From: SAR116 cluster bacterium AG-447-C21
GTDB lineage: Bacteria; Pseudomonadota; Alphaproteobacteria; Thalassobaculales; Thalassobaculaceae
Direction of reading: 5' to 3'
Assembly: GCA_003212315.1 (NCBI GenBank)
Contig: QCQB01000004.1
Location: 62,001-126,000 of the forward strand
DNA: 64,000 nt
In this document: positions 2,160 to 7,644 of the stretch, piece after piece
Layout: every line of letters begins with the position of its first letter
Numbering within the stretch: the first letter of the stretch is position 1
The notes under the pieces: model-generated
What the model was told of the DNA's origin: nothing
Databases searched by the model: none
Seen by the model: only the letters and a program-made list of their open reading frames with translations
Made by a program: the position numbers and the translations under genes

Positions 2160-4862
2160 CTAGAAAAAAATAGATTCTACCGAGTAACTGCCTGAAGTTT
2201 GAGACAATTCCCCAATGTTTGCCATGACATTCAAGTAATAGTCACCTGTGCTCGGAGCGGTATACGATACAGAAGCTTCAAACCCCGTTCCACTATCATC
2301 ATCTTGCGCAACCAAGGTATTGTTTTCATTATATAAGAAAGCTTGAGGGTCCCAAAGAGTTCCATGATTACTATGTGAACCCCGAACATCAAACCTATAA
2401 GTTGTATCTGCTTCGAGTGAAAATCGGAACATATCCCTGTCGCCAAGGAAATCAATATTACCAGCAAAAATAGTATTTAGGTTTGCAAGCGATGCCCCGT
2501 TTATAGTATCGCCAACTATGTCTCCAAGACTGCTCGTAGCAATAGATGTCTGTTTAACATCTAGCTGATACGAACCAGTCAAAGCTGAACTAAATGCACC
2601 GGCCTCTATATATATTTCGCCTGTCGACGGAGCAGTATAACTTAACAAACTTTCAAACCCCCGACCTCCATCGTCGTTTTGACCAAGTACTTCTCCGTTA
2701 ATATCTAAAACACGCAACAGTGGGTCGGTTAATGTACCTACATTCGAAGTCGAACCTTTCATATCGATTTGATATGTTGCACCGGATGTCACGGATAAAG
2801 AGAAAACATCTTTATCGCCGCCAATCTCTATGTTTCCCGTTTGGGAGATGCCAGGAGTTATAGAAGTTAACCCAAGTGAAGGCGCATTGGCTATATCATT
2901 GTCAGCAGAGCCCCCCGATGCCCCGACGGAAATCTCATACGTCCCTGTATGTGTATCAAATGCACCAGCTTCCACATACAATGTTTCAGTAGTCGTCGGT
3001 GTATAAATTATTTGTGATTCTAACCTAAAACCACCATCATCATTTTGACCTAAAATGGTTCCGGTCGAGTCCTTTAATGTCAATAATGGATCTCGCAAAT
3101 TGCCAACAGAAGACCAAAAACCTTTCTGATCTATCGTATAGGTGACACCAGCCTGAACGTCTAAGGAGAAAATATCAGTATCGCTTGCAATCTCTAAATT
3201 ACCAGATTGATTAGTCCCAACACTCAAGGCCGTATTACCACCAATATTACCAGAATGATCATCTTGGATAGTGACGTCAGTAACGTCTAATTGGTATGTA
3301 CCGGTCAAACCAGAACTGAAAGCACCCGCCTCTATAAAAAAATCTCCACTTGTTGATGGAGCGAAAGTTAAACTAGACTCAAATCCAGTTCCTCCATCGT
3401 CATTTTGAGCTATCTGAGAGCCATTAGAATCTAAAATCGTAACAATTGGATCTGTCAAAGTCCCAAGTGCCGAAGGCTCCCCCCTAAGGTCAATTAAGTA
3501 AGTTGAGCCTGCTGTTCCAGAAACTTTGTAAACATCCTTATCTCCACCTCTTTCTAAGTTTCCTATTACGGAAACTCCCGGAGCCACTGCTGTGTTTGAT
3601 CCTATTGAATCTGGATGGTCATCTGTGCTTGGCTGTTGCAAAGTTGGTGCATCTGGAAGTGTTCCTCCGGCAGCCAAAAGCCCAAGTGCATTTACATCAA
3701 GTACTCTATAATTACCGCCTGTCGCTGGATCTGAGAAAGTAGATGCCGATTGCTGGAGAAATGTCTCAAAATCATCGACTGATAAGTTAGGATTGAGTTG
3801 GCTCATTAATGAAGATACACCGGCGACATAGGGAGTTGCCATGCTCGTTCCACTCAATGTTTGCGTTGTTGCTCCAACCCCAGGAGCAGCATTGGTTATT
3901 CCTGTACCTGGCGCGAATACTTGTGTGATCGTTGTATCTCGCTGAGAATAACTTGCTGCGCCTTCATTTACGCTATCTAAGGCACTTATTGCTAACGCGT
4001 TGGGATCTGATGCTGGTGTCCCCACTCCCTCAGCATTGAATGATGCAAAACTATTACCAGCTGCTACAAAAGTTATCACACCTTGTGACTTCAACGCAGC
4101 GATTTCATCACTTAACGATGACAACTGGGTCGAGGACGAATTATCTGAAGCCCCGAGGGACATATTAACCGAAGTGATGTTATAGGTCGCACGATTATCT
4201 AAAACCCATTGTAACCCTGCCTCTATACTAGAAAAAGAACCACCATTTGCTCCTAAAACCTGAATTGCTGCCACATTAGCCCCTGGGGCAGTACCAGGGA
4301 ACGTTGCATCTGATGACATCGCGATCCCAGCTACATGTGTTCCATGAGTATCTGAGTCTTGCGCCCCATTACCATCACCGTGAAAATCCGCAGACGCCAC
4401 GATGTTATCGGAAACACCGTCACCATTAGTATCAGCTCCAAAAAATGGATGATCTAAATCAATCCCCGTATCTAACACAGCTATAGTCGTTCCACTGCCA
4501 TCAATAGTCGGATTCGCTGTTTTAAAGGCCTCCAAGTTTGTCGCGGCCGAAGCGGTCGCTGCCACACCAAATGTTAAATTGGACTTTGTTGTGATTGTGG
4601 GAACAAAATTTCCCCCAACAGAACTACTATTTACCGACATTGATGCAATAAGCGACTTTTCGGTATATTCGTCAGCATCTGCCTTCATGTTACTATCGCT
4701 GGCGGATAGGACAAAGTTACTCGACGTCTGGGATATACCGTCATCGGCAAGCACTAAAATATTGTTATCCCCTATACCGTCTTTGAGCGTATACCCATAA
4801 ATCTGGCCAGATCGTTCGTTAAAGTTCAGGTACTCAGGCAGTTCTTCGCCAGTCGAGGACAT
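2160..4862 (-). CDS. Subtilisin-like (S8) serine protease with four PPC repeats; main fragment of a frame-broken gene
   Basis: This is a 900-residue secreted-type peptidase. Residues 1-55 resemble the end of an Ig/dystroglycan-type domain (YLNFNERSGQIYGY). The S8 catalytic domain covers about 100-395: Asp131 (AVLDTGID), His173 (THGTHVAG), oxyanion Asn270 (VAAGN) and Ser340 (SGTSMATPYVAG), a complete triad. Residues about 410-900 hold four bacterial pre-peptidase C-terminal repeats of some 115-120 residues, each with a GGDKDVF/SDTDIF-like strand, a TLTDP-like strand, a (Q)NDDGG loop and an (I)EAGAF or equivalent strand. The ATG at 4862 has no ribosome site. The same frame is open upstream through the ten-C tract, where it lines up with the preceding fragment if one C is removed, giving one protein of about 1094 residues. 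The natural start is therefore probably at 5445. Such proteins degrade extracellular protein. Confidence 0.88.
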   Translation of the reverse strand: MSSTGEELPEYLNFNERSGQIYGYTLKDGIGDNNILVLADDGISQTSSNFVLSASDSNMKADADEYTEKSLIASMSVNSSSVGGNFVPTITTKSNLTFGVAATASAATNLEAFKTANPTIDGSGTTIAVLDTGIDLDHPFFGADTNGDGVSDNIVASADFHGDGNGAQDSDTHGTHVAGIAMSSDATFPGTAPGANVAAIQVLGANGGSFSSIEAGLQWVLDNRATYNITSVNMSLGASDNSSSTQLSSLSDEIAALKSQGVITFVAAGNSFASFNAEGVGTPASDPNALAISALDSVNEGAASYSQRDTTITQVFAPGTGITNAAPGVGATTQTLSGTSMATPYVAGVSSLMSQLNPNLSVDDFETFLQQSASTFSDPATGGNYRVLDVNALGLLAAGGTLPDAPTLQQPSTDDHPDSIGSNTAVAPGVSVIGNLERGGDKDVYKVSGTAGSTYLIDLRGEPSALGTLTDPIVTILDSNGSQIAQNDDGGTGFESSLTFAPSTSGDFFIEAGAFSSGLTGTYQLDVTDVTIQDDHSGNIGGNTALSVGTNQSGNLEIASDTDIFSLDVQAGVTYTIDQKGFWSSVGNLRDPLLTLKDSTGTILGQNDDGGFRLESQIIYTPTTTETLYVEAGAFDTHTGTYEISVGASGGSADNDIANAPSLGLTSITPGISQTGNIEIGGDKDVFSLSVTSGATYQIDMKGSTSNVGTLTDPLLRVLDINGEVLGQNDDGGRGFESLLSYTAPSTGEIYIEAGAFSSALTGSYQLDVKQTSIATSSLGDIVGDTINGASLANLNTIFAGNIDFLGDRDMFRFSLEADTTYRFDVRGSHSNHGTLWDPQAFLYNENNTLVAQDDDSGTGFEASVSYTAPSTGDYYLNVMANIGELSQTSGSYSVESIFF

Positions 4863-4887
4863 CGCTGTAACAGATCCATTAAATCCA

Positions 4888-5445
4888 TTACCCCCCCCCC
4901 AAATCCATAACGATACTCACTGGCAAATTAAATGAACCACTTATTTCCGTCTCAACGGTATCAAACCTATTGGAAACAATTATCGTCGACTGCTGACTAG
5001 CAAGTTGCTCAGCTTCCCGCGTATCCACCACCCCACCGTAGCCTATTATTCCTTCCGAAGTATACGAGCTGGAGGCTTCGAAATTCTCTATCTCATTGAT
5101 GTCTGTGGAATAATGATGAAATCCCGTTTCGGTATTGAAAAATCGATGAACCGCCTGCGTCCCATCCACTTCGGTTTGAAAAAGTCTGAAGACATTACCC
5201 TCTTCCACAAAGTCAGCGTTTGATCGCAACACCTCTATTTCAAGCGGGTCTGCGGTAAAAACGTGATCATTTGTGCTGGTATTTAAAAAACGAGTAAATT
5301 GGAGATCGCCACTCTCAAAACCCTCAAAAGCTGCTTTTTGATTCAAGCCACCCTGCAGGGTTTCCCCCTCCTCTGCAGCAGCATAGTGCAAAAAGTTATC
5401 ACCAGAATATTGAACGATGAGTTCATTATAAACTTTGGATACCAT
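4888..5445 (-). CDS. N-terminal fragment of the secreted protease: DUF5648-like repeats
   Basis: This 185-residue frame starts at ATG 5445 behind a GGGAAA ribosome site. It contains beta-rich repeats of the type FTRFLNTSTNDHVFTAD, VHRFFNTETGFHHYSTD (residues about 50-130), resembling DUF5648, a domain found attached to secreted hydrolases and surface proteins. The frame ends in GGG-stop immediately at the ten-C tract (4891-4900), and the sequence continues in another frame into the S8 protease. With nine C the two parts fuse in frame (MDLGGG, then NGFNGSVTAM). No classical signal peptide is visible at the start, so export could be by a type I system; this is inference. Alone the fragment would have no enzymatic role. 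Confidence 0.75.
   Translation of the reverse strand: MVSKVYNELIVQYSGDNFLHYAAAEEGETLQGGLNQKAAFEGFESGDLQFTRFLNTSTNDHVFTADPLEIEVLRSNADFVEEGNVFRLFQTEVDGTQAVHRFFNTETGFHHYSTDINEIENFEASSSYTSEGIIGYGGVVDTREAEQLASQQSTIIVSNRFDTVETEISGSFNLPVSIVMDLGGG
4891..4900. repeat. Ten-C homopolymer at the frame break in the protease gene
   Basis: Exactly ten C on the plus strand (ten G in the coding strand) lie where the reading frame of the protease shifts. The upstream frame reads Gly-Gly-Gly-stop across it; the downstream frame is open through it. Loss of one G, or gain of two, joins the two. Such tracts change length by slipped-strand mispairing in phase-variable surface genes, and they are also a common site of sequencing error. 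Confidence 0.9.
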
Positions 5446-6438: not shown

Positions 6439-7644
6439 ATGGCAGGTGCATTAAAAGGCATAAAGATTCTGGATCTAACCTCTGTTGGTTTTGGTCCATA
6501 CGCTTGTCAAATTTTGGGCGATTATGGTGCAGAGATAATTAAAATTGAATCTCCCGATGGAGATATTACCCGAGGGATAGGGCCATTTCGTAATAATGGA
6601 ATGGGTCACTTTTTTTTAAATGCAAATAGAAATAAACGTAGTCTAGTTCTCGATCTAAAGAAAGGCGCTGCTAAGAGAATATTTTTTAACTTGGTAAAAA
6701 GTGCCGATGTAGTTATGACATCTATTAGGCCCGCGGCTATGGATCGATTAGGGCTAGGCTTTGATGATTGTATTAAGATAAATGAAAAATTGATATACGT
6801 TGCGTTAGTTGGATTTGGGCAATCGGGACCATATGCGAAAAGACCCGCCTATGACGATATTATTCAAGGTGTTTCTGGAATGGCCTCAATGCAAGGAGGT
6901 AGAGATGGGGACCCCATTTTTGTGAATGCGTCTATTTGCGATAAAATATGTTCTCAAATTGCCGCACATGCTACTCTAGCGGCACTCTATAGTAGAACAA
7001 ATGATGGGATTGGTCAGTTAGTCGAGGTGCCGATGTTCGAATCAATGGTAGGATTTAATCTAGTAGAGCACCAGTCAGGCATGACCTTTGAACCCCCCAT
7101 GGGAGATAGAGGGTACGAACGATCCATGGCGAAGCACCGCAAACCCTATGCCACATCGGACGGTTTTGTTTGCGCACTTCCATATACAACAAAACATTGG
7201 CAAACTTTCTTTTCTATAATGAAAAGAGATGATTTGGTGAATGATCCGCGAGTCGTAAATGCAAAAATAAGAAGTGAAAAAATTGCCGAACTTTATGAAC
7301 TAGTATCCGAATTAGTAAAAGATTGGACAACGAACGAGCTTTTAGAAGCTCTGCATGTTGGCGACATTCCACACGGCGAAGCAACCGAATTAAATAACTT
7401 AGAAAATGACCCTCATTTGAGTGAGATAGATTTTTTCCAATTGATAGATCATCCATCAGAGGGGAAAATAAAACTAACTTCACCTCCAGTAAATTTTTCT
7501 GAAACTCCTGCAACTATTGATCGATTACCTCCGCTACTAGGGGAACATAACAAAGAAATTCTAAAGGAGATTGGATATACTGATGAAGAAATATCAAAAC
7601 TTCACGAAGACCAAATCATAGGTTGTTCAGATATAGGCCAATAA
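6439..7644 (+). CDS. CaiB/BaiF (class III) CoA-transferase
   Basis: This 401-residue enzyme moves CoA between carboxylic acids through an aspartyl-CoA anhydride. It opens with GIKILDLTSVGFGPYACQ and AEIIKIESPDGD, typical of the family. Asp168 in SICDKICS takes the position of the catalytic Asp. VEVPMFESM (about 194-202) is the usual following strand, and the C-terminus has DIPHGEATELNNLENDPHL. Length matches the family (about 390-410). The substrate pair cannot be told from sequence. The gene has GGGGCG ahead of the ATG and stands alone, divergent from the 226-aa gene, and is followed 60 bases later by the RNase D gene. It may be involved in catabolism of an organic acid. Confidence 0.9.
   Translation: MAGALKGIKILDLTSVGFGPYACQILGDYGAEIIKIESPDGDITRGIGPFRNNGMGHFFLNANRNKRSLVLDLKKGAAKRIFFNLVKSADVVMTSIRPAAMDRLGLGFDDCIKINEKLIYVALVGFGQSGPYAKRPAYDDIIQGVSGMASMQGGRDGDPIFVNASICDKICSQIAAHATLAALYSRTNDGIGQLVEVPMFESMVGFNLVEHQSGMTFEPPMGDRGYERSMAKHRKPYATSDGFVCALPYTTKHWQTFFSIMKRDDLVNDPRVVNAKIRSEKIAELYELVSELVKDWTTNELLEALHVGDIPHGEATELNNLENDPHLSEIDFFQLIDHPSEGKIKLTSPPVNFSETPATIDRLPPLLGEHNKEILKEIGYTDEEISKLHEDQIIGCSDIGQ

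What the first reader, a model, noticed from the sequence alone, without database searches (positions are those of the whole stretch)
4888..4902. Secreted subtilisin gene broken exactly at a ten-C homopolymer
The frame from 5445 ends in Gly-Gly-Gly-stop and the downstream frame is open through the same tract. Removing one C (or adding two) fuses them into about 1094 residues with intact DUF5648-like, Ig-like, S8 and PPC parts. This is the classic layout of a phase-variable surface or secreted protein, but also the classic place of a sequencing error.
Basis: partly seen in the sequence, partly recalled or inferred. Interest (0 to 1): 0.62.

Follow-up and report, generated by a model that had tools for sequence, protein, structure and literature searches.

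The report
Protease gene split by mis-sized C-run
An ordinary secreted-type protease gene of a SAR116 ocean bacterium looks cut in two at a run of ten Cs, but the same genome and its relatives show the same kind of break in housekeeping and even essential genes, so it is most likely a run-length error in the assembly and not an on/off switch.

Summary
On the minus strand a 185-aa DUF5648 frame (5445-4888) ends in GGG-stop at a C10 run (4891-4900), and a second frame (open from 4916, ending 2160) carries half of a putative Ig domain, a complete S8 peptidase and four PPC repeats. The phase-variation reading is not supported. The two nearest relatives (99% and 96% N-terminal identity) keep the gene whole at 1094 aa, but their tract is interrupted (G6+AGC, G8+CG) and one base shorter; more distant orthologs have no such tract. 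The genome's G/C runs fall off geometrically with no 9-10 peak. Three other G-run breaks in this genome hit cytosolic genes (Fe-alcohol dehydrogenase, thioredoxin-TPR protein, hydantoinase A), each in a glycine motif, with whole homologs elsewhere. Sister genomes show similar breaks in ribosomal protein S9 and SMC. No coding A/T run of 8 or more is broken (0 of 17). MutS and MutL are intact. The S8 frame is under purifying selection (dN/dS about 0.14). The most economical reading is a homopolymer length error in a draft assembly; a real slippage mutation in the sampled strain is the main rival. The gene is a lineage-conserved subtilase. Reads could not be inspected.

The parts
4888..5445 (-). 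N-terminal frame, 185 aa, DUF5648, ends GGG-stop at the tract
   Evidence: 96-99% identical to the N-terminus of whole genes in sister genomes
4891..4900 (-). C10 run (G10 in the gene); the interval is one base longer than in the two nearest relatives
2160..4916 (-). downstream open frame: remainder of putative Ig domain, S8 peptidase, four PPC repeats, C-terminal SVESIFF
   Evidence: purifying selection
3741..4499 (-). Peptidase_S8 domain with Asp (DTGID 4458-4472), His (HGTHVAG 4326-4346) and Ser (GTSMA 3837-3851) motifs all present
6439..7644 (+). CoA-transferase family III gene, the conserved divergent neighbour in sister genomes

Best explanation
The gene is a whole, lineage-conserved multidomain subtilase (DUF5648 - Ig-like - S8 - PPC x4, about 1094 aa) of a SAR116 bacterium. 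The apparent break is a length error at a G/C homopolymer, arising in amplification, sequencing or assembly of a draft genome. Shown: tract, frames, whole orthologs, equivalent breaks in unrelated housekeeping genes, ongoing constraint. Inferred: that the extra base is absent from the real chromosome. Function inferred from domains: an exported protease of the cell surface or medium, possibly sent out by a type I system.
For: Orthologs are whole in six of seven relatives and the seventh is cut by its contig end. In the same genome G-runs also break Fe-ADH (G11; Pfam match 1-90 then 88-168), a thioredoxin-TPR protein (G9) and hydantoinase A (G8; 1-256 then 247-289), each inside a glycine motif, while homologs are whole with shorter runs. 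In sister genomes G/C runs of 9-13 break rpsI (Pfam S9 1-58 then 60-121), SMC and an FtsJ-type methyltransferase. The broken share of coding runs rises with length in the own genome (8: 1 of 15; 9: 1 of 3; 10: 1 of 2; 11: 1 of 1), while coding A/T runs of 8 or more are 0 of 17 broken. The S8 frame has dN/dS about 0.14 against G001 and 9 synonymous to 3 non-synonymous codon changes on the window's branch. No other disabling change exists in 909 codons. MutS and MutL are intact, so there is no sign of a mutator. Literature: Illumina can create spurious indels in homopolymers, estimated to affect up to 1% of genes in a metagenomic dataset (PMC8808543).
Against: The same paper says such errors matter most above 14 bp, so errors at G8-G11 need an extra cause such as amplification slippage or low coverage. 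The sequencing method of G000 is not known here. The tract also differs from its sisters by substitutions that make it a pure run, which an indel error alone does not explain. A very recent real mutation would leave the same constraint signal. The difference between G/C and A/T runs rests on small counts.
Confidence: 0.78

Rival explanations
1. A real, recent slippage mutation in the sampled cell or strain: substitutions made the run pure, then it gained a base, giving a loss-of-function allele or young pseudogene.
For: The tract in the window is purer and longer than in G001 and G004. Pure G runs are intrinsically unstable. Constraint on a just-broken gene would still look normal.
Against: The same class of break occurs in rpsI and SMC of sister genomes, where a real break would be lethal or nearly so. 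No further decay is seen.
Confidence: 0.15
2. Programmed phase variation: reversible slippage of the run switches the protease on and off in the population.
For: A G10 run inside an ORF of an exported-type protein, in the length range known to switch Campylobacter genes (PMC6321876).
Against: The tract is interrupted in the two closest relatives and absent in the rest. The genome's runs decline 20, 5, 2, 1, 0, 1 for lengths 8-13, with no 9-10 peak as in Campylobacter. Other runs break housekeeping genes. The whole state is the rule in relatives.
Confidence: 0.05
3. The run is real and the two frames are joined by transcriptional or ribosomal slippage on the homopolymer.
For: Long homopolymers allow polymerase slippage (established knowledge from other systems). 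It would also tolerate breaks in essential genes.
Against: No ortholog found carries such a pure tract, so no conserved programmed site exists. It needs many independent rescues, where one technical cause suffices.
Confidence: 0.02

Closest known systems
Subtilase (Peptidase_S8, PF00082) with C-terminal PPC repeats (PF04151) and N-terminal DUF5648 (PF18885)
   Same: Domain matches above Pfam cut-offs and all three catalytic motifs
   Different: The domain order DUF5648 - Ig-like - S8 - PPC x4 is particular; it is conserved in this SAR116 lineage, not unique to the window
Poly-G/C phase-variable genes of Campylobacter and Neisseria
   Same: G/C run of ten within an ORF, at a frame break
   Different: Tract not conserved in orthologs, no genome-wide peak of 9-10 runs, similar breaks in essential and housekeeping genes
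Homopolymer indel errors in draft genomes
   Same: Length-dependent breaks at G/C runs in unrelated genes, off by one or two bases, with whole homologs elsewhere
   Different: Reads not available, so the error itself was not directly seen

Membership tests
Peptidase S8 (subtilase) | Pfam S8 match above cut-off | tested here: met
   135.3 bits against cut-off 21.8, profile 1-274 of 288
Peptidase S8 (subtilase) | Asp, His and Ser catalytic motifs | tested here: met
   DTGID, HGTHVAG, GTSMA present
Homopolymer phase-variable gene | G/C tract of at least 7-8 inside the ORF | tested here: met
   C10 at 4891-4900
Homopolymer phase-variable gene | uninterrupted tract kept in orthologs, with variable length | tested here: not met
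   G6+AGC and G8+CG in the two closest, absent in the rest
Homopolymer phase-variable gene | excess or length peak of such tracts in the genome | tested here: not met
   geometric decline; 4 runs of 10 or more against about 2-3 expected
Homopolymer phase-variable gene | mixed tract lengths within one population | not testable with these tools
   no reads held; the genome collections hold one genome per species
Pseudogene | further disabling changes or relaxed constraint | tested here: not met
   909 codons open; dN/dS about 0.14; 9 S to 3 N on the window's branch
Homopolymer assembly error | same kind of break at G/C runs in genes that are unlikely to be dispensable or switched | tested here: met
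   rpsI, SMC in sister genomes; Fe-ADH, thioredoxin-TPR, hydantoinase A in the own genome
Homopolymer assembly error | raw reads disagree with the consensus length | not testable with these tools
   no reads available

The most novel reading that the evidence does not exclude
Free-living SAR116 bacteria may carry real, freely slipping G/C runs in many genes, including this protease, so that each cell has a different set of broken or slippage-rescued genes; the closest sisters would simply not show the tract at this gene.
Probability: 0.04. Interest if true: 0.55.

Novelty: not a real feature. Interest (0 to 1): 0.1.

Why it matters
Mainly a caution: G/C runs of nine or more in draft SAR116 genomes produce apparent gene breaks that imitate phase-variable loci, so surveys of phase variation in such drafts need read support. 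If the switch were real, it would be a case of phase variation in a free-living open-ocean bacterium.

Tried and rejected
Mutator genome: rejected, MutS and MutL are whole. Pseudogene decay: no further lesions, constraint retained. Tract conserved as a contingency locus: rejected by orthologs. Genome-wide excess of long G/C runs: only mild. A literature search for homopolymer indels in single-cell genomes found nothing. No structure was predicted, because sequence matches settled the domains. The type I secretion scan mostly lists generic ABC transporters; only one match is above the family's cut-off. In one search the third query was an arbitrary placeholder without meaning.

Full report
What is there. 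On the minus strand, a run of ten C (4891-4900) separates two open frames. The upstream one, 5445-4888, encodes 185 aa with a DUF5648 domain and ends DLGGG-stop. The downstream one is open from 4916 to 2160 and holds a putative Ig domain remainder, a complete S8 peptidase with Asp, His and Ser motifs, and four PPC repeats.

Whose gene it is. The window lies in a 2.67-Mb, 120-contig, 83% complete draft. Relatives bearing the gene are named as SAR116 cluster bacterium AG-313-A07 and uncultured Alphaproteobacteria or Rhodospirillaceae drafts, so the organism is placed in SAR116. The gene sits beside a CoA-transferase III gene in sister genomes. Seven relatives carry it; six are whole at about 1099-1116 aa of open frame and one is cut by its contig end.

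The tract in relatives. The two closest orthologs read ATTT-G6-AGC-TAATGG (G001) and ATTT-G8-CG-AATGG (G004), one base shorter than the window over the same interval, and whole. More distant orthologs lack the run. A contingency locus should keep an uninterrupted run; this one does not.

The run in its genome. G/C runs of 8, 9, 10, 11 and 13 number 20, 5, 2, 1 and 1, a roughly geometric fall; the expectation for 10 or more is about 2-3. In Campylobacter the distribution peaks at 9-10 (PMC6321876). No such peak is seen.

Internal controls. Of the runs of 8 or more lying inside reading frames in the own-genome DNA examined, four break the frame: the window's gene, an iron-containing alcohol dehydrogenase (G11 in its GGGS motif), a thioredoxin-TPR protein (G9) and a hydantoinase A (G8). 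The homologs fetched from relatives are whole with shorter runs; for the thioredoxin-TPR gene two sister species have G7 where this genome has G9. These three are cytosolic housekeeping-type proteins broken in conserved glycine motifs. A/T runs of 8 or more inside frames are never broken (0 of 17). In sister genomes, G10 breaks rpsI, a 9-base run breaks SMC, a 10-base run breaks an FtsJ-type methyltransferase and a 13-base run breaks a membrane protein. Ribosomal protein S9 and SMC are not credible phase-variable or discarded genes (established knowledge), so consensus lengths of long G/C runs in these drafts are not reliable. This is the main argument; it transfers to the window by analogy and is not a direct observation of reads.

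Constraint. Against G001 the S8 frame has dS 0.042 and dN 0.0058; on the window's own branch 9 synonymous and 3 non-synonymous codon changes are counted. No second lesion exists. The gene has been functional until very recently or still is. MutS and MutL are whole.

Caveats. Illumina homopolymer errors are described as most frequent above 14 bp (PMC8808543), so an amplification or coverage cause is likely needed as well. The sequencing method of G000 is unknown. The window's run also carries substitutions relative to its sisters that make it pure, so a real, unstable run with a real extra base remains possible (about 0.15).

Export. No signal peptide is evident at the N-terminus by eye. The C-terminus SVES(I/V)FF or SVEAIFF is conserved in the genus and resembles an acidic-plus-hydrophobic type I secretion ending (inference). 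A PrtD-type exporter above cut-off exists at G000:C28:11917-13554, near another DUF5648 protein at C28:9238. This does not affect the verdict.

Verdict. Ordinary gene, apparent break most likely technical; phase variation about 5%.

Noticed in passing
G000:C28:9238-9459 and C28:11917-13554: A DUF5648 protein lies about 2.5 kb from a PrtD-type type I exporter, the only match above that family's cut-off in five genomes of the genus; DUF5648 may mark type I cargo.
   Followed up: no
L031 (G000:C40) position 4900, and L106 (G000:C11) position 3000: A G13 run and a G8 run lie directly upstream of ATG codons (a dioxygenase-like and an HpcH/HpaI aldolase-like gene, named by eye), in the position of a ribosome binding site; their length might affect translation or also be mis-sized.
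   Followed up: no
L151 (G020:C5), L157 (G030:C24), L155 (G030:C10), L146 (G003:C41): Frame breaks at G/C runs of 9-13 in rpsI, SMC, an FtsJ-type methyltransferase and a membrane protein in sister drafts.
   Followed up: partly
L021 (G000:C84:2940-3326): A DUF5648-like stretch with five in-frame stops, apparently a decayed copy.
   Followed up: no
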